Shown: one piece after another, positions 9,668-64,000 of the stretch
Layout: every line of letters starts with the position of its first letter
How positions within the stretch are numbered: the stretch's first letter is position 1
Assembly: GCA_002862125.1 (NCBI GenBank)
Contig: PHSP01000003.1
Coordinates: 930,001 to 994,000, forward strand
From: Methylobacter sp. KS41
GTDB lineage: Bacteria; Pseudomonadota; Gammaproteobacteria; Methylococcales; Methylomonadaceae
Length of the DNA stretch: 64,000 bases
Reading direction: 5' to 3'
Program-made: the position numbers and the translations under genes
The notes under the pieces: generated by a model
Told to the model about the DNA's origin: nothing
Database searches by the model: none
Seen by the model: only the letters and a program-made list of their open reading frames with translations

Positions 9668-9721
9668 TCCAGCCCGGTAGGGTGAGCAACGCTTTTCTGC
9701 CCGCCATAACCATAACCGCAT

Positions 9722-9774
9722 AACCAACCCAACACAAACCATCCAATCCTTCACCGGGTTGGGTGGTTTTTTTT
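9722..9774 (+). terminator. pilA terminator, first copy
   Basis: Stem CCCAAC / GTTGGG extended by CC-AA / GGTT across one bulge, with a loop of about 24 nt and a run of eight T. It is 55 bases after the pilin stop. Confidence 0.7.
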
Positions 9775-9871
9775 GATCACCTTTGGGTGTTATTGGTGGG
9801 CAAAACCGTCTGCCCACCCTACAAAATGGGCAACGCTTTTCTGCCCGCCACAACCATAACCGCAACCACAT

Positions 9872-9924
9872 AACCAACCCAACAAAAACCATCCAATCCT
9901 TCATCGGGCTGGGTGGTTTTTTTT
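9872..9924 (+). terminator. pilA terminator, duplicated copy
   Basis: The same stem and T-run as at 9722-9774 with a few substitutions, 150 bp downstream; it was duplicated with the REP unit. Confidence 0.6.
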
Positions 9925-10091
9925 GATCACCTTTGGGTGTTATTGGTGGGCAAAACCGCCTGCCCACCCTACAAATGGGCAACGCTTTTCTGCCCACCCT
10001 ACATGACAACTGCGGACAAAACCGCATTTCCCGCCCTGCATTTACCGCCTGTTGCTATACTGAATGAATCCGCTGGCCTACACCAATTACT

Positions 10092-56851: not shown

Positions 56852-57108
56852 TGGCTACCGAAGCATTTACTATTAGAGCTGAAACAGAAATCGTACATAA
56901 ACTGGACGACCTAGCTGGATCACTAGACAGATCGCGGAATTATTTAGTCAATCAAGCCATAAAGGAATATCTGGAAACTCACGCCTGGCAAGTTGAGAAA
57001 ATCACCCAAGGCATAGCCGCCGCTGATCGTGGTGAATTGGTTGCTCATGATGACGTCATGCGTGAAATGGAAGACTTGATCGAGCGCAAAGCCAAAGGTA
57101 ACGCGTGA
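56851..57108 (+). CDS. Ribbon-helix-helix antitoxin (ParD/CopG-like)
   Basis: 85 residues from ATG 56851, with GGAG eight bases upstream (GTG 56842 is the longer option). RHH pattern: EAFTIRAETEIVHKLDDLAG, then SRNYLVNQAIKEYLE, and a C-terminal toxin-binding tail (DVMREMEDLIERKAKGNA). Its TGA overlaps the toxin GTG. It should bind the operon promoter and the toxin. Confidence 0.88.
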   Translation: MATEAFTIRAETEIVHKLDDLAGSLDRSRNYLVNQAIKEYLETHAWQVEKITQGIAAADRGELVAHDDVMREMEDLIERKAKGNA

Positions 57109-57431
57109 AAATAGTCTGGACCGAACCGTCCCGACAAGATTTACGTGACATTTTTATATACATTTCCGAAGACAATACGAAAGCCGCTCGCGCTTTGCTT
57201 TCCAAAATTAAAGAACGAGCTATTCTACTTCAAGACAATCCGCTCATAGGACGAATTGGCCGCGTAGATGGAACGCGGGAATTAGTGATCACAGGAACCC
57301 GGTACATCTTGCCATATCGTGTAAAAGAAAATCAAATTCAGATTCTGGCTGTTTTTCATGGTGCAGACAATGGCCGGATAATTTTTAATTCGGCGCATAT
57401 AAATAATAAAAAACATGGAAATCATCGATAA
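57105..57431 (+). CDS. ParE/RelE-superfamily toxin
   Basis: 108 residues from GTG 57105. MKIVWTEPSRQDLRDIFIYI, NPLIGRIGRVDGTRELVI, RYILPYRVKENQIQILAVFHG: the typical RelE/ParE order. ParE members act on gyrase and RelE members on mRNA; which applies is not clear, but the RHH partner favours ParE. It overlaps the helicase gene by 17 bases. Confidence 0.88.
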   Translation: MKIVWTEPSRQDLRDIFIYISEDNTKAARALLSKIKERAILLQDNPLIGRIGRVDGTRELVITGTRYILPYRVKENQIQILAVFHGADNGRIIFNSAHINNKKHGNHR

Positions 57432-60400
57432 CATAAATCATCTGCTCGGGGATAATCTCAAACAGACGATAAAACCGGGTTCAAAGTTAAAGATCGCTGC
57501 ATCCTGCTTTTCAATTTATGCATTCGAGGCATTAAAGAAGGAACTGGAAAATATTGCTTCTCTTGAATTCATTTTTACCTCGCCAACCTTTGTGCCCAAT
57601 GAGGTCACGGACAAAATCAAAAAAGAACGCCGTGAATTTCATATTCCCAAAGCCGAACGTGAGCGTAGCTTTTATGGCAGTGACTTTGAAATCCAGCTCA
57701 AGAATAAACTGACACAACGGGCTATCGCCAAAGAATGCGCAGACTGGATGCGCCGCAAAGCCATTTTTCGCTCTAATCGCGGCAAAGCGCCTATGCAACA
57801 GTTTGCCTGCGTGCAAGGTAAAGAGTCTGATGCGGTTTACATGCCGTTGCATGGCTTTACCGCCGTTGATCTTGGCTATCAACATGGTGATGCGGTATCG
57901 AATATGGTCAACAAAATGGACGAGCCAACAATCACGCCAACGTACTTGAGTCTCTTCGATCAAATCTGGAATGATGCCGAGAAACTGGAAGATGTTACCT
58001 CACGCCTCTGTGACCATATTGCTTCGGTTTATCAGGAAAACTCGCCAGAACGCATCTATTTCCTGATGCTCTACAACATCTTTAATGAGTTTCTGGAAGA
58101 CCTAAACGAAGATGTACTGCCCAATGATCGCACCGGCTATCAGGATAGCCTGATTTGGCAAAAGCTCTTTAACTTTCAGAGAGACGCGGCTGCCGGCATT
58201 ATTAATAAACTGGAAACCTATAGCGGCTGTATTCTTGCCGACAGTGTAGGCTTGGGGAAAACCTTTACCGCGCTGGCGGTCGTTAAATATTACGAGCTGC
58301 GCAATCGTTCGGTCCTGGTGCTTTGCCCCAAAAAACTGGCTGACAACTGGTTAAACTATAACCGTAACCTTAAAACCAATATTTTTGCTAAAGACCGTTT
58401 CAATTACGACGTGCTTTGCCACACCGATCTGCAAAGAACCAGCAGCGAATCGTTTGGCACACCGCTCAACCGCATCAACTGGGGTAATTACGATCTGGTC
58501 GTCATCGATGAATCGCATAACTTCCGCAACAACGATGCTTTCAAAGACCGGGAAACGCGCTATCAAAAGTTGATGAATGCCGTTATCAAGGAAGGCGTTA
58601 AAACCAAAGTGCTGATGCTCTCGGCCACTCCAGTCAACAATCGCTTCAATGACTTGCGGAATCAACTCGCGCTTGCCTATGAAGGCAATCAAGAAATTCT
58701 TAGTAAAAAGCTACGCACAAATAAAAACATCGACGAGATTTTTCGTAGAGCGCAGGCTAGCTTTAATCTTTGGTCTAACTTGCCACCTGAACAGCGCACA
58801 GCCAAAGCCATTTTAGGCGCTTTGGACTTTGACTTTTTTGAGTTACTGGATAGCGTGACCATTGCCCGGTCGCGCAAACATATTGAGACCTTTTACGACA
58901 CGAAGGACATCGGCAAATTCCCCGAACGCCGTAAACCGCTGTCATTCCACAGTCCGCTTACGCACCGGACTGACGTGATTGGTTTTAACGAGATTTTTGC
59001 ACATCTTTCGATTTTAAAATTAGCTGTCTACGCGCCTATCAGCTACATTCTGCCCAGTCGGCTGGCTAAATATGAAGCGCTCTATGACACGGAAGTGGGT
59101 GGGGGTAAAAGCAAACTTAAACAGTCGGATCGTGAAAAAAGCCTACAGGCGTTAATGACAATCAACTTGCTCAAGCGCCTTGAAAGTTCTATTCAATCTT
59201 TCCGGTTAACCCTGCAAAAACTAAAAGACAAGCATCTCGGCACGCTCTTAAAAATCAGCGATTACAAGAAAACCGGCAAGGATATTCGCTTTGCAGACCT
59301 TGCCGCCGCCTACGAAAATGCCGAACCAGACGAAGACGATTTTCCTGAACCGGATGATGCAAAGATTGGCGGCAAGATTCAGATCAGTTTGTCCGACATG
59401 GATTTGCCATCGTGGGAACATGAATTAAAGGCCGATCTATTGGTCATTGACGCACTCCTAACCGAGATGCACAAAATCAAGTCTACTGAAGATGCCAAGC
59501 TCCAGCATCTTAAAGCCCAAATCGACAACAAGCTGGCTGTGCCCATTAATCCAGGCAACAAGAAGATTTTGATTTTCACGGCGTTCGCTGACACTGCCAA
59601 CTATCTGTATGAGCATATTGCTCCCAGTCTGCTGCAAAGTCATCAGTTGCATACAGGCAAAGTCACCGGCGGTGACAGCCCAAAATCTACACTCAAACAA
59701 AACTATGATTTCCAATCCCTGCTTACGCTCTTTTCGCCACTTTCAAAAGAAAAAGCCGCCATTTTGCCGAATGAGCCTAACGAAATTGATATTCTTATCG
59801 GCACGGATTGCATATCCGAAGGCCAAAACCTTCAGGATTGCGACTATCTGATCAATTACGATATACACTGGAATCCCGTGCGCATTATTCAGCGTTTCGG
59901 GCGTATTGACCGTATTGGCTCGCAGAATGCCAGCATCCAACTGGTCAATTACTGGCCGGATATTACCTTGGACGAATACATCAATCTTAAAGAGCGCGTT
60001 GAAAACCGCATGATGATTGCCGATGTCACCGCCACCGGTGATGACAACGTGTTAAGCGCACAATCCAACGATGTATCCTATCGCAAGGAGCAACTACGGC
60101 GCTTGCAGGAAGAAGTGATTGAAATGGAAGACCTTAAAACCGGCGTTTCCATTACCGATCTTGGCCTCAATGATTTTCGGATGGATTTGCTTAATTATGT
60201 AAAGACTAACGGTGATATGATCGGTATACCCAGTGGCATGCACGCTGTCGTGCCTGCCGCTCCAGAACGCGGCTTGTTGCCTGGCGTTATTTTTACCTTG
60301 CGCAACCTAAACCAGGGCGTCAACGTCAACCAACAAAACCACCTGCATCCATATTACCTGGTCTATATCAGCCAGGCCGGTGACGTGATTACCAACCACA

Positions 60401-60723
60401 CCGAAGTCAAACGCCTGCTCGACTTGGTTCGTAGTGCCTGCAAGGGCCAAAGCCAAACTATCGCCGATGTTTGCCGGTTGTTTAATCAGTCCACTGAAGA
60501 CGGGCGCAACATGCAGGCTTATTCTGATTTGCTCGGCAAGGCCATTCGCTCCATGATTGACGTGCAGGAAGATAAAGACCTCGACAGCCTGTTTAGCGGC
60601 GGTCGCACCACGGCGCTGATTAACACCATTGCCGGCCTGGATGACTTTGAGCTGATTACTTTTCTGGTTATTCAGGATAAGGATGAGGGAAAGGATGAAA
60701 GAGGAAGGATGAAGGCTGAATGA
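57415..60723 (+). CDS. SNF2/SF2 helicase with PLD-like N-terminus (defence-type)
   Basis: 1102 residues. The N-terminal 150 residues (KLKIAASCFSIYAFEALKKEL) look like a phospholipase-D-type fold without an obvious HKD pair. Helicase motifs: Walker A LADSVGLGKT (276-284), DESH box VVIDESHNFRN (365-368), LMLSATPVNN, then IGTDCISEGQNLQDCDYLINYDIHWNP and QRFGRIDRIGSQN. Such helicases accompany DUF4391 and type III-like methyltransferase genes in defence islands. The last residues (DKDEGKDERGRMKAE) come from a heptanucleotide repeat array, not the native C-terminus. ATGA overlap with the next gene. Confidence 0.88.
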   Translation: MEIIDNINHLLGDNLKQTIKPGSKLKIAASCFSIYAFEALKKELENIASLEFIFTSPTFVPNEVTDKIKKERREFHIPKAERERSFYGSDFEIQLKNKLTQRAIAKECADWMRRKAIFRSNRGKAPMQQFACVQGKESDAVYMPLHGFTAVDLGYQHGDAVSNMVNKMDEPTITPTYLSLFDQIWNDAEKLEDVTSRLCDHIASVYQENSPERIYFLMLYNIFNEFLEDLNEDVLPNDRTGYQDSLIWQKLFNFQRDAAAGIINKLETYSGCILADSVGLGKTFTALAVVKYYELRNRSVLVLCPKKLADNWLNYNRNLKTNIFAKDRFNYDVLCHTDLQRTSSESFGTPLNRINWGNYDLVVIDESHNFRNNDAFKDRETRYQKLMNAVIKEGVKTKVLMLSATPVNNRFNDLRNQLALAYEGNQEILSKKLRTNKNIDEIFRRAQASFNLWSNLPPEQRTAKAILGALDFDFFELLDSVTIARSRKHIETFYDTKDIGKFPERRKPLSFHSPLTHRTDVIGFNEIFAHLSILKLAVYAPISYILPSRLAKYEALYDTEVGGGKSKLKQSDREKSLQALMTINLLKRLESSIQSFRLTLQKLKDKHLGTLLKISDYKKTGKDIRFADLAAAYENAEPDEDDFPEPDDAKIGGKIQISLSDMDLPSWEHELKADLLVIDALLTEMHKIKSTEDAKLQHLKAQIDNKLAVPINPGNKKILIFTAFADTANYLYEHIAPSLLQSHQLHTGKVTGGDSPKSTLKQNYDFQSLLTLFSPLSKEKAAILPNEPNEIDILIGTDCISEGQNLQDCDYLINYDIHWNPVRIIQRFGRIDRIGSQNASIQLVNYWPDITLDEYINLKERVENRMMIADVTATGDDNVLSAQSNDVSYRKEQLRRLQEEVIEMEDLKTGVSITDLGLNDFRMDLLNYVKTNGDMIGIPSGMHAVVPAAPERGLLPGVIFTLRNLNQGVNVNQQNHLHPYYLVYISQAGDVITNHTEVKRLLDLVRSACKGQSQTIADVCRLFNQSTEDGRNMQAYSDLLGKAIRSMIDVQEDKDLDSLFSGGRTTALINTIAGLDDFELITFLVIQDKDEGKDERGRMKAE
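60679..60718 (+). repeat. Heptanucleotide array A (helicase tail)
   Basis: AAGGATG-type heptamers (AAGGATG, AAGGATG, AAAGAGG, AAGGATG, AAGGCTG) with one 5-base interruption. It encodes the final dozen residues of the helicase and abuts the four-helix-bundle start. Confidence 0.75.
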
Positions 60724-61118
60724 AAGATTTGCGAATCAGAACTAAGGAGTTCGCCCTGCGGGTTATACGTTTGTATTCATCGTTGCCTACAAGTGCCGAA
60801 GCGCAAGTGCTAGGCAAGCAACTACTGCGTTCTGGCACCTCTGTCGGTGCACATTATCGAGAAGCGATTCGTGCCCGGTCAAATGCTGAATTTATCAGCA
60901 AACTTGAAGGCGGCATGCAAGAGCTGGAAGAAAGCAGCTACTGGCTGGAGCTATTAGCCGAAGCACACATCTTTACGCCTGAAAAACTTACGCCGCTGAT
61001 GGCTGAAGCCGATGAACTCATGGCCATTCTGACGACATGCGTAAAAAAAGTTAAGGCGGAAGGCAGAAGAGTGAAAGATGAAGGTAGAAGGCTGAAGGAT
61101 GAAAGTTGCGCGCAATGA
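60720..61118 (+). CDS. Four-helix-bundle protein (S23 / 23S rRNA intervening-sequence type)
   Basis: 132 residues. LRIRTKEFALRVIRLYSSLP, then LGKQLLRSGTSVGAHYREAIRARS, then FISKLEGGMQELEESSYWLELLAEA, then ELMAILTTCVKKV: the four helices of the S23/IVS family (related to Avd proteins of diversity-generating retroelements). Biochemical function is not known. The C-terminal KAEGRRVKDEGRRLKDES is encoded by a heptamer array with a 7-residue period. Heptamer arrays lie on both sides, and the gene sits between two genes that normally adjoin. Confidence 0.88.
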   Translation: MKDLRIRTKEFALRVIRLYSSLPTSAEAQVLGKQLLRSGTSVGAHYREAIRARSNAEFISKLEGGMQELEESSYWLELLAEAHIFTPEKLTPLMAEADELMAILTTCVKKVKAEGRRVKDEGRRLKDESCAQ

Positions 61119-61148
61119 TTTCATCCTTCATCTTTCCTCCTTCAGCCT
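61053..61148 (+). repeat. Heptanucleotide palindrome B
   Basis: Eight purine-rich heptamers (AAGGCGG, AAGGCAG, AAGAGTG, AAAGATG, AAGGTAG, AAGGCTG, AAGGATG, AAAGTTG), a 12-base centre, then four complementary heptamers (TCATCCT, TCATCTT, TCCTCCT, TCAGCCT). It spans the stop of the four-helix-bundle gene and the start of the DUF4391 gene. Confidence 0.8.
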
Positions 61149-61774
61149 TATTTTCCAAGGTATTACCCAAGAATAAAATCTATGAGCACGCAAAGCCGAG
61201 TAGCGTCGTGCGTGAGCAATTTGTCACGCAGGTAGACAAGATTGTTTGGCAATACAAATTAGCGCCTGAAACGGTAAACTTGCCCGCAAAACCCAGTGTG
61301 CCGGAAATCCAGATTTTTTCAATCGTCCTAAAAACACCGGACCTCAGCGAGGATGTCTTGCGTTGTATTGACCAAGCCATTCCTTTCCCCATCATTTACC
61401 AGCTCACTTTTGAAGACCGCATTAAAGTTAAGGCAGCTTACAAACGCCCCAATGACGCCAACGCCAGTAAATGGGTGGTTGATAGTTACTTCGAGACCGG
61501 CTGGTTGCCCAATGACGCAGAACGCGCTGAACTGCCCGTTGCACTGGACTTGGACGGGCTTTATGAGCAAATGCTAAGACGGCTCCTGCCGCTGCCGGCG
61601 CGAGCAGGTGAAACCATCAAAGCCCAAGTGGAACGGCTGGGTTTACTTCGCGGTAAACAAAACGAATGCCGCAAAATGGAAGCCCGTTTACAAAAAGAAC
61701 AACAATTTAATCGCAAGGTGGAATTGAATGCACAATTGCGCCAACTGAAGCTTGAATTGGCAAAGCTCATGTAA
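61115..61774 (+). CDS. DUF4391-family protein
   Basis: 219 residues from ATG 61115 (TTG 61106 also open). VLPKNKIYEHAKPSSVVREQ, then VDKIVWQYKLAPETVNLPAK, then IPFPIIYQLTFEDRIKVKAAYKR, and a coiled C-terminus: DUF4391, a constant companion of PLD/SNF2 helicases and type III-like methyltransferases. Function is unknown. The first dozen residues (ISSFIFPPSALF) overlap the complementary arm of repeat B, so the native start may have been rebuilt. Confidence 0.85.
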   Translation: MISSFIFPPSALFSKVLPKNKIYEHAKPSSVVREQFVTQVDKIVWQYKLAPETVNLPAKPSVPEIQIFSIVLKTPDLSEDVLRCIDQAIPFPIIYQLTFEDRIKVKAAYKRPNDANASKWVVDSYFETGWLPNDAERAELPVALDLDGLYEQMLRRLLPLPARAGETIKAQVERLGLLRGKQNECRKMEARLQKEQQFNRKVELNAQLRQLKLELAKLM

Positions 61775-61835
61775 ACCAAGCTGATTTTGTGTAAAGTACA
61801 CGTAACGTCAATCAAAAACGGATAAGGGCAAAAAA

Positions 61836-62086
61836 ATGAACGCGGTCGAGTTTCAAGCGACCGTCCTAACGGCGTGATTACCTTACCCGGCAATCAACAA
61901 TCCTGGAACGGTAAAAAAATTAAAGTTATTCTATTAGATGAAGCTAGCCTCGATGCAACAGAAATAGCAGCCAAGGAATCAACCTCTGAAGCTGATTTTT
62001 TCAACTGTGCGGGGATATGGGAAAACCGCGACGACATCAATCAGGAATCCATACGCGCTAAGGCATGGCGGGATAATATACGGTGA
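61836..62086 (+). pseudogene. VapB-like antitoxin, frameshifted
   Basis: Begins MNAVEFQATV, then one base is missing near 61865 (GTCCTAACGGC where GTC CGT AAC GGC is expected). The correct frame goes on NGVITLPGNQQSWNGKKIKV and ends WRDNIR. Its TGA overlaps a GTG that starts a 13-residue PIN-domain stub. Confidence 0.7.
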
Positions 62087-62124
62087 TACTTTGCGATACC
62101 CATATCCTGATTGAATTTTATTAA
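62083..62124 (+). pseudogene. Truncated VapC (PIN) toxin start
   Basis: GTG start, then ILCDTHILIEFY and a stop. This is the first strand and first acidic residue of a PIN toxin, cut off after 13 codons. It is in GTGA overlap with the broken antitoxin, so both halves of the pair are dead. Confidence 0.65.
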
Positions 62125-62182
62125 GCCATCCTATCGAGCTGACGCGAAAAATCTTAAATACACCATAGACAAGGAAAAAAAC

Positions 62183-62398
62183 ATGATTACCAAAGAACAA
62201 CTCAAAGACGAAATTAATACGGTGGAAGATCCACAAACATTGGAATTGATTTATCAACTGCTGTTAAAAATAAAACAAGGTAACATCCCGCAAAAACTGA
62301 CACTGACAAACTGGTTGCTTGAAAATATGCAGGGCTTAGGCAATTTAAACTTACCCGATAGAAAAGAAACCGATAGAGAAATACCTTTCCAACCATGA
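62183..62398 (+). CDS. Antitoxin-like small protein upstream of VapC
   Basis: 71 residues from ATG 62183 (MITKEQLKDEINTVEDPQTL), with a purine-rich site upstream. It is helical, with ELIYQLLLKIKQ in the middle and a polar C-terminal tail (DRKETDREIPFQP) suited to toxin binding. Its TGA overlaps the vapC ATG, which is the main reason to call it an antitoxin. Confidence 0.7.
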   Translation: MITKEQLKDEINTVEDPQTLELIYQLLLKIKQGNIPQKLTLTNWLLENMQGLGNLNLPDRKETDREIPFQP

Positions 62399-62811
62399 AA
62401 GCGTATTTATTGGATACCAATGTTATCTCAGAAATAATGACAACTGAGCCAAACCAACGCGTCATTGATTTTTTGGCCCATTTAAAAGAGAGTTATTTAT
62501 CTGTCATTACGCTACATGAGTTGTACTATGGATTGCAGCTTTTGCCCGAAGGACAACGGCGCAACACAATAGCAAGTAAATTACAAAACCTGCTCACTCA
62601 CTATAACGATTACATCATGCCCATTAATCAGGCAATAGCACTTCAAGCCGCTGTATTACGCGCTGATGCCAAGCAACAAGGACGAATAGTTCATTTGGCG
62701 GATGCTTTAATTGCGAGCACGGCAAAAGTAAATAATTGGATAGTCGCCACCCGAAACACCAATGACTTTATAGATAGTGGGGTTGACATCATTAACCCTT
62801 GGACTATTTGA
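62395..62811 (+). CDS. VapC-type PIN-domain toxin
   Basis: 138 residues. Acidic PIN residues: YLLDTNVISEIM, SVITLHELYYGL, IVHLADALIASTAK and VATRNTNDFIDSGVDIINPW. Expected metal-dependent RNase on tRNA or mRNA, held by the upstream protein. Intact. Confidence 0.9.
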   Translation: MKAYLLDTNVISEIMTTEPNQRVIDFLAHLKESYLSVITLHELYYGLQLLPEGQRRNTIASKLQNLLTHYNDYIMPINQAIALQAAVLRADAKQQGRIVHLADALIASTAKVNNWIVATRNTNDFIDSGVDIINPWTI

Positions 62812-62974
62812 ACCCTGAAAATTGCCGCTTTTAGACCGCGCAACTTGCCATCTGCCAGTTACTCAACACACAAGCCTAGCCATGTCCGACAAACTCAAAC
62901 TACACAGCCCCGATTTTACGCAAGCCAACATCGCCAAACTGGCCGAACTGTTTCCCAACTGCGTGACAGAAATT

Positions 62975-63047
62975 AGGGATGAAGGTGGAAGGATGAAGGA
63001 TGAAAAAAAACCGGACGGTTCATCCTTCATCCCTCAGCCTTCATCCT
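62975..63047 (+). repeat. Heptanucleotide palindrome C
   Basis: Four heptamers (AGGGATG, AAGGTGG, AAGGATG, AAGGATG), a 17-base centre AAAAAAAACCGGACGGT, then TCATCCT, TCATCCC, TCAGCCT, TCATCCT. Translated in frame as RDEGGRMKDEKKPDG then SSFIPQPSS. Confidence 0.9.
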
Positions 63048-63240
63048 TGGATATAGGCTTTCGTGTCCTGAAAATCGACAGCTCCAACATGAAGGACGTT
63101 TACTACACGCCTGACGCGGTGCAACAAACCCACCTTTTTGACCAGATCGACAATATCCGCGAAGGCCGCACCGCTGAAGATTTGCTGTTCCAGGTGCTGC
63201 TGGATTGGGGCGTGGATTTGACGCTGCCCATCACTATGGA

Positions 63241-63356
63241 AAGGATGAAGGTTGAAGGAGGAAGGATGATGGAGGAAGTTGGTAAAGATGAATTAGGAAG
63301 GATGAAGGATGAAAAAAAACAGGACAATTCATCCCTCAGCCTTCATCCTTCATCCT
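63241..63356 (+). repeat. Heptanucleotide palindrome D
   Basis: About ten degenerate purine heptamers, a 17-base centre AAAAAAAACAGGACAAT (13 of 17 bases as in palindrome C), then TCATCCC, TCAGCCT, TCATCCT, TCATCCT. Translated in frame within the Mod C-terminal domain, between DLTLPI and VFFVDD. Confidence 0.9.
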
Positions 63357-63593
63357 TCAAAGAATACCAAGTTTTCTTTGTCGACGATAACGCCCTGGCC
63401 GCCTGTTTCGATGCGGATATTAACGAGGCTTTCGTCAAGGAACTAGCCGCCCGTCATCCGCTGCGGGTCGTGTTCCGCGATGCCGGATTTGCCAGCGATA
63501 GCGTGAAAATCAACATTGAGCAAATCTTTAAGTTGCTTTCGCCAAGCACTGAGATTAAAACTCTGTAAAAGTATTAGTAATTGGAGAGCCAAC

Positions 63594-63812
63594 ATGAATC
63601 CACAACAAACAAATACCGCGCATAGTCTTTACGCACTCTACGAAACGCTACCTAATGAGGTTCAGCAGGCTTTTCTTGTGGAATTGTTGCAAAAAAAACA
63701 TCAAGAGCTGGAAGACTTGGCGTTTGCTCTCGCCTGTAAGCAGGCTAAAGATGAAAATCAGTTTCTAAACGAACAAGAAACACAGGCATTTATACAAAGT
63801 TTGTCGCAATGA
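63594..63812 (+). CDS. Antitoxin-like small protein
   Basis: 72 residues from ATG 63594 (MNPQQTNTAHSLYALYETLP). Helical and acidic, ending ETQAFIQSLSQ. Start chosen by a GGAGAGCC site just upstream; a longer frame overlaps the Mod remnant. Its TGA overlaps the next ATG, as in the other toxin-antitoxin pairs here. Confidence 0.7.
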   Translation: MNPQQTNTAHSLYALYETLPNEVQQAFLVELLQKKHQELEDLAFALACKQAKDENQFLNEQETQAFIQSLSQ

Positions 63813-64000
63813 AAATTGAAATCAGCAAGCGTTTTGTAAAAGACACGCAAAAAATCACCGACAAACGGATCTTGGCAAAAATCCAGCGGGTTTTGCTTGA
63901 AGCCAGTCAAATTGAAAGCCTGACAAACTTGAGCGATTTAGAAGAAATGTCCGGTTTTCCTAACTTTTATCGAATAAAATTTGATTACCGTTACCGCATC
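63809..64000 (+). CDS. RelE-superfamily toxin (3' partial)
   Basis: The first 64 codons before the window ends: MKIEISKRFVKDTQKITDKR, then ILAKIQRVLLEA, then MSGFPNFYRIKFDYRYRI. The order of helix pair then FYRIKFDYRYRI strand fits RelE/HigB-type toxins. Coupled to the upstream gene by ATGA. Confidence 0.8.
   Translation, partial: MKIEISKRFVKDTQKITDKRILAKIQRVLLEASQIESLTNLSDLEEMSGFPNFYRIKFDYRYRI

What the first reader, a model, noticed from the sequence alone, without database searches (positions are those of the whole stretch)
60679..63356. A family of translated heptanucleotide palindromes inside genes
Seen: four arrays of AAGGATG-like 7-mers (60679-60718, 61053-61148, 62975-63047, 63241-63356). 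In three, a purine-rich array is followed by its complementary array, giving a hairpin; C and D share an A8-C-M-GGAC-type 17-nt centre. All lie in coding sequence and stay open, giving a 7-residue period (KDEGRRL-type) and an SSF/PSS-type return arm. Known analogues are heptanucleotide STRR repeats of cyanobacteria and palindromic elements in rickettsial proteins. Inference: a mobile or expanding palindromic element that tolerates insertion in frame.
Basis: partly seen in the sequence, partly recalled or inferred. Interest (0 to 1): 0.75.

Follow-up and report, generated by a model that had tools for sequence, protein, structure and literature searches.

The report
Heptamer hairpin elements carrying IVP genes
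The repeats are the paired arms of small hairpin elements: one here carries a gene of the kind found in inserts of ribosomal RNA genes, two others are empty copies inside a defence gene, and similar hairpins made of 7-letter repeats surround most such genes examined in quite different bacteria.

Summary
Arrays A and B flank a PF05635 gene (IVP, 23S rRNA intervening-sequence protein, 60720-61118) and fold with that gene in the loop. In 14 of 14 homologous loci printed (of 29 returned) the helicase and DUF4391 genes abut without it. Arrays C and D are gene-less hairpins in a type III mod gene; some homologues carry in-frame hairpins at the same sites, others none, and the window copy lost about 450 residues between two hairpin sites. 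In the host genome the arrays lie almost only here (20 of 24 hits). Elsewhere the plan recurs: 72 of 89 IVP genes tested have inverted flanks beyond controls and period 7 stands out; 64 of 89 show clear arrays, of 47 heptamer classes. One Acidobacteriota genome has 87 candidate gene-less hairpins in 640 kb. I read these as relatives of rRNA intervening sequences (IVS) living in protein-coding operons. A published 23S IVS also has heptamer repeats at its arm (PMC4990558), which supports kinship and limits novelty. Processing and spread are inferred.

The parts
57415..60723 (+). SNF2-type helicase gene; its last codons are replaced by array A
   Evidence: Pfam SNF2-rel_dom, Helicase_C; PADLOC best match HKD+Snf2; homologues end differently
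60674..60720 (+). array A: left (purine-rich) arm of the IVP-carrying element
   Evidence: 7-nt row; pairs with the return arm of B
60720..61118 (+). IVP gene (PF05635), 132 aa, in the loop of the hairpin; its tail is translated array B
   Evidence: E 2e-19, residues 8-105
61053..61149 (+). array B: purine-rich array plus return arm (61120-61149), right end of the element
61106..61774 (+). DUF4391 gene; about 17 native N-terminal residues lost, frame begins in the return arm
   Evidence: Pfam E 4.8e-61; 14 homologues
62882..63568 (+). remnant of a type III mod gene without its middle; open frame from 62822
   Evidence: PADLOC MTase_III; 26 residues against 470-499 between two landmarks
62975..63048 (+). 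hairpin C, at the joint between site 1 and site 2 of mod
63241..63357 (+). hairpin D, site 3 of mod

Best explanation
The arrays are the inverted arms of small IVS-like elements. One (about 60674-61149) carries an IVP gene and sits between two genes of a defence cassette; C and D are gene-less relatives inside mod. Shown: arms, gene, absence of the element in homologues, replacement of target sequence, in-frame tolerance, loss of the mod middle between two hairpin sites, and heptamer-built inverted flanks around most sampled IVP genes in other bacteria. Inferred: the element is transcribed with its operon and folds into a stem with the IVP gene in the loop; the stem is cut by RNase III as in 23S rRNA IVSs; slippage by 7 nt and hairpin-templated recopying keep the arms long and matched; the IVP protein binds the hairpin and helps it persist or spread. 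The cassette probably reached this host with its elements already in place.
For: IVP gene between paired arms. Empty site in 14 of 14 printed homologues. Hairpins present at some mod sites and absent at others, one 30-nt arm shared between different sites in three genomes. Flanks of IVP genes beyond the 99th percentile of shifted controls in 28 of 30, 25 of 30 and 19 of 29; lag-7 identity 0.43, 0.34 and 0.41 against 0.24-0.26. IVP co-directional with both neighbours in 65 of 83, against 34 of 54 for other adjacent pairs. 28 of 30 AAGGATG-hairpin genomes carry PF05635 against 57 of 349 and 64 of 237 in two samples. In the Coxiella 23S IVS, passages report tandem GACAGAT heptamers of varying number before the S23p ORF, at the RNase III cut site (PMC4990558).
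Against: No movement was observed and no enzyme identified. Gene-less hairpins were absent from 800 kb of four IVP-bearing Methylomonadaceae genomes, so IVP is not sufficient for them. Gene-less hairpins in G250 show no operon orientation bias (48 of 72 against 192 of 306), unlike IVP elements. 17 of 89 IVP genes did not pass the arm test. In the family set a locus's own arms were the best match for its left arm in only 5 of 30 (20 of 30 in the rich set). G254 and G263 have the hairpin pattern without IVP; the G254 pattern looks like another palindrome. The 28-of-30 comparison mixes phyla.
Confidence: 0.6

Rival explanations
1. Local growth only: replication slippage made 7-nt arrays, template switching copied them into palindromes, and the IVP gene is a bystander.
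For: Unit number and order vary between homologues; excess of heptamer repeats in bacteria is noted in print and tied by some to polymerase slippage (PMC4692102, passages).
Against: Does not explain 72 of 89 IVP genes with matched inverted flanks, nor the same hairpin plan in many phyla.
Confidence: 0.15
2. REP-like palindromes: gene-less hairpins are moved by an unrelated transposase such as a RAYT, and IVP elements are one special case that exploits the same hairpins.
For: High copy and intergenic placing in G250: 73 of 87 centres outside ORFs of at least 400 nt, while 6678 of 8000 random points lie inside.
Against: Many heptamers, not one conserved sequence; association with IVP genes. RAYT genes were not searched for.
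Confidence: 0.15
3. A regulatory or translational device: the arrays give overlapping start/stop and Shine-Dalgarno-like units that couple neighbouring genes.
For: Array A supplies the ATGA overlap of helicase stop and IVP start; IVP genes lie between co-directional genes.
Against: Heptamer identity is not conserved (47 classes in 64 loci), and homologous operons do without them.
Confidence: 0.07
4. The IVP gene is the accessory protein (Avd) of a diversity-generating retroelement.
For: PF05635 resembles Avd (PMC10053308, passage).
Against: The six reverse-transcriptase matches of the host all lie outside the window. A template/variable repeat pair was not searched for.
Confidence: 0.03

Closest known systems
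23S rRNA intervening sequences (IVS) with an S23/IVP ORF (Coxiella case, PMC4990558: abstract start and passages seen)
   Same: IVP-family ORF between terminal inverted repeats; 428 nt there, about 476 nt here; heptamer repeats at the arm, variable in number between strains there
   Different: Here the element lies between or inside protein genes, not in rRNA; many heptamers; gene-less copies; RNase III cutting not tested
REP/REPIN palindromes (PMC3116915 and PMC3733652: search listings only)
   Same: short, numerous, mostly intergenic palindromes
   Different: arms of 7-nt tandem units of many sequences; associated with IVP genes
Heptanucleotide repeats of cyanobacteria and Xanthomonas (PMC4692102, passages), and the 7-nt repeat stems TDNGATT/NNTGAGT of the Nostoc trnL intron P6b (PMC4476775, passages)
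   Same: 7-nt units, sometimes inverted to form stems, intergenic or in introns
   Different: no IVP gene mentioned in the passages seen
TAACTGA direct repeats of Beggiatoaceae (PMC4679880, abstract start in listing)
   Same: 7-nt unit, intergenic
   Different: 169 direct and one indirect repeat set, so not palindromic
Rickettsial palindromic elements in proteins (recalled, no call)
   Same: palindromes inserted in frame in genes
   Different: not compared here

Membership tests
23S rRNA IVS | encodes an S23/IVP (PF05635) protein | tested here: met
23S rRNA IVS | terminal inverted repeats forming a stem around the ORF | tested here: met
23S rRNA IVS | location in 23S rRNA | tested here: not met
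   between helicase and DUF4391 genes; no rRNA match in 40 of 60 IVP loci of two sets scanned
23S rRNA IVS | excision by RNase III | not testable with these tools
   inferred only
Avd of a diversity-generating retroelement | reverse transcriptase next to the gene | tested here: not met
   none of six RVT_1 matches of the host lies in the window
Classical transposon or MITE | target-site duplication at the ends | tested here: inconclusive
   replacement rather than duplication at two junctions, but homologues are diverged
REP/REPIN | conserved palindrome with a GTAG or CGTC tag and a RAYT | not tested
   tags recalled from the title of PMC3733652; RAYT not searched

The most novel reading that the evidence does not exclude
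IVP (S23) genes define a large class of mobile intervening elements, widespread in bacteria, whose ends are not a fixed sequence but any of many 7-nt tandem units kept complementary between the two arms. They invade operons and even reading frames, give rise to gene-less hairpins that reach high copy in some genomes, and are a main source of the excess of heptanucleotide repeats in bacteria; the 23S rRNA intervening sequences are only their best-known members.
Probability: 0.4. Interest if true: 0.9.

Novelty: new variant of a known kind. Interest (0 to 1): 0.75.

Why it matters
It would say what many IVP or four-helix-bundle genes of unknown function belong to, give a cause for the recurrent heptamer repeats of bacteria, and show how palindromes enter proteins in frame. 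It links rRNA intervening sequences to a wider set of elements inside mRNA operons, here in a defence cassette where two hairpins seem to have caused a deletion of the methyltransferase domain.

Tried and rejected
Rfam on 57000-64000 gave five weak microRNA matches far below their gathering scores. In the PDB search the many TAL-effector rows have no stretch that passes on its own and were set aside; 2rld is the one proper match. The idea that AAGGATG is the one element sequence failed: 47 heptamer classes in 64 array-bearing IVP loci. The idea that IVP-bearing genomes are always rich in gene-less hairpins failed: 0 in 800 kb of four such genomes, and 0 in 400 kb of two genomes without IVP. 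In the palindrome search of G250 other periods gave 1 (5), 14 (6), 49 (8), 13 (9), 16 (10) and 1 (11) candidates against 87 for period 7; most of the period 6, 8 and 10 ones printed are one octamer family. With stricter arms: 69 for period 7, 68 for 14, 23 for 8, at most 1 for the rest of 4-13. Of the 87, six fit none of the seven heptamer families that I named by eye, and at least one is plain GC-rich sequence.

Full report
What is in the window. The arrays were confirmed at the stated places in open frames. Between arrays A and B lies a PF05635 gene, the family named after proteins encoded in 23S rRNA intervening sequences. Its start codon lies at the end of array A and its C-terminal tail is translated array B. 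Folding 60670-61155 as RNA pairs the outer part of array A with the return arm of B and leaves the gene in the loop; z -3.62, no shuffle of 100 folded as well. The arm score of 22 exceeds all 116 control placements in the window (maximum 17).

Host genome. With up to two mismatches the 16-mer occurs 24 times in 4.74 Mb; 20 hits lie in this 2.7-kb stretch. In the family sample 16 of 201 genomes have a match with up to one mismatch; many of these are single hits and may be chance. In G031, G050 and G071, of three other genera, all such hits lie in the mod locus. I infer that the cassette moves between hosts together with its elements. In the plasmid collection 23 records hold an IVP relative; the closest are 71% identical (Pseudanabaena) and 66% (a Chloroflexota plasmid). 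The Chloroflexota copy stands between a helicase and an N6 DNA methylase and has AAGGATG-type arms.

Empty site of the IVP element. I printed 14 of 29 non-window DUF4391 loci. In all 14 the helicase ends in a conserved tail and DUF4391 starts within a few bases of it. In the window the last few helicase codons and about 17 first residues of DUF4391 are missing and the element stands there: a replacement, not a clean insertion with a duplication.

Hairpins in the mod gene. G031 and G050 have a hairpin at site 3, G071 at sites 1 and 2, G126 a one-unit hairpin at site 3; G023 has none at the sites compared. At site 3 the inserts are 37 (window), 27 (G031, G050) and 7 (G126) residues longer than the empty copies. 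The return arm TTCATCCTTCATCCCTCAGCCTTCATCCTT is identical in G050 site 3, G071 site 2 and window hairpin C, which suggests copying between sites. Five intact homologues have 470-499 residues between NCVTE and DIGFRVLK; the window has 26. Its left flank matches site 1 and its right flank site 2 of G071, so a deletion between two hairpins is the simplest account of the missing middle.

How general it is. Of 30 such genomes 13 of 13 (3-25 matches each) and 15 of 17 carry PF05635: 28 of 30, all over the curated cut-off. Samples not chosen for hairpins give 57 of 349 in the phylum (53 over the cut-off) and 64 of 237 in the family (51 over it); the 14 control genomes give none. Phyla differ between these sets, so this is an association only. 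Over the 30 genomes the raw pattern count and the IVP count correlate (Spearman 0.52); the raw count includes overlapping registers.

IVP flanks. Local alignment of the upstream flank to the reverse complement of the downstream flank passed the 99th percentile of shifted controls in 28 of 30 loci from hairpin-rich genomes, 25 of 30 from the host family and 19 of 29 from the phylum (25 of 29 at the 95th). Identity at lag 7 is 0.432, 0.339 and 0.406 against controls of 0.256, 0.252 and 0.241; lags 14 and 21 are raised too, other lags by at most 0.03. A strong array is present in 25 of 30, 17 of 30 and 22 of 29, against 12 of 116, 3 of 118 and 4 of 116 control windows; the 64 loci fall in 47 heptamer classes, and where both sides score the class is the same in 24 of 49. 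Seventeen of the 30 family loci are one orthologous place between cysD and cysN, so that set is not 30 independent cases. IVP runs with its upstream neighbour in 77 of 86, with its downstream one in 75 of 86 and with both in 65 of 83; other adjacent pairs agree in 34 of 54 (a simple ORF caller). Named examples stand between csx2 and cas1, helicase and N6 methylase, drmD and pglX, with arm scores of 24, 19 and 33 against control maxima of 12, 10 and 13.

The cysD-cysN place. Of 30 loci 23 could be read: 7 have a 36-45 nt spacer, 5 an IVP element of 419-442 nt, 11 other or degraded inserts. In the five filled loci the short spacer is not recognisable. Arms of 17 orthologues pair better within a species than when swapped in 97 of 136 pairs, 8 ties, 31 the other way; the pairs are not independent.

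Gene-less hairpins. In 640 kb of the Acidobacteriota genome G250 a de novo search found 87 period-7 candidates of 48-119 nt; 81 fit one of seven heptamer families, 12 of them AAGGATG. With slightly stricter settings G250 gave 19 in 240 kb, G248 4 in 160 kb, mononucleotide-shuffled sequence 0 in 400 kb, window 1-57000 none and 272 kb of family loci none. 73 of 87 centres lie outside ORFs of at least 400 nt, while 6678 of 8000 random points lie inside; flanking ORFs are co-directional in 48 of 72, like the background 192 of 306. Four IVP-bearing Methylomonadaceae genomes had none in 800 kb and two without IVP none in 400 kb. So proliferation of gene-less hairpins belongs to some genomes only.

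Reading. The plan, an S23/IVP gene between inverted repeats, is that of the 23S rRNA IVS, whose stem is cut by RNase III (PMC4990558, abstract start and passages). The same passages report tandem GACAGAT heptamers, two or three by strain, before the S23p ORF, with the RNase III site at the first repeat. The heptamer arm is thus in print for one rRNA IVS; what is new here is that it recurs with many heptamers around IVP genes in protein operons, with gene-less copies and in-frame insertions. None of 40 IVP loci scanned (20 of 30 from each of two sets) has an rRNA match. I therefore call this IVS-like, not a 23S IVS. Transcription, cutting, and help by IVP are inferred from plan and orientation; template switching and slippage are inferred from the unit variation and the within-species matching of arms.

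Print. Ten searches of an open-access library turned up papers on heptamer repeats, on trnL intron stems, on rRNA IVSs and on Avd proteins. Apart from the Coxiella passages I saw none that joins IVP genes to heptamer arms, but most hits were seen only as listings, and subscription journals and preprints are not covered.

Noticed in passing
G250 (L195-L206, L372-L391): A second palindrome family with arms of CACAGAGA/CACAGAGG units (period 8) and a variable centre; 49 period-8 candidates in 640 kb.
   Followed up: partly
L166 1980-2100 (G031, mod site 2): A different palindrome (GGCTTTAGCCTCGACTGG type) sits at the mod site where G071 has a heptamer hairpin.
   Followed up: no
window 62111-62811: A PIN-domain gene with a small upstream frame, toxin-antitoxin-like, lies between DUF4391 and the mod remnant.
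   Followed up: no
G250 and G262 hairpins: Centres of hairpins with different heptamers look alike, roughly TTAAGAC-N-GTCTTAA; judged by eye only.
   Followed up: no
L328 and L332 (G083, G141), cysD-cysN: Other inserts stand there next to what looks like the right heptamer arm of an IVP element.
   Followed up: no
window 9686-9995 and 1908-2061: Unrelated tandem repeats: a 150-nt unit about twice and a 39-nt unit about four times.
   Followed up: no
host genome: Four of six reverse-transcriptase matches have the same score, E-value and frame length, as if copies of one mobile element.
   Followed up: no
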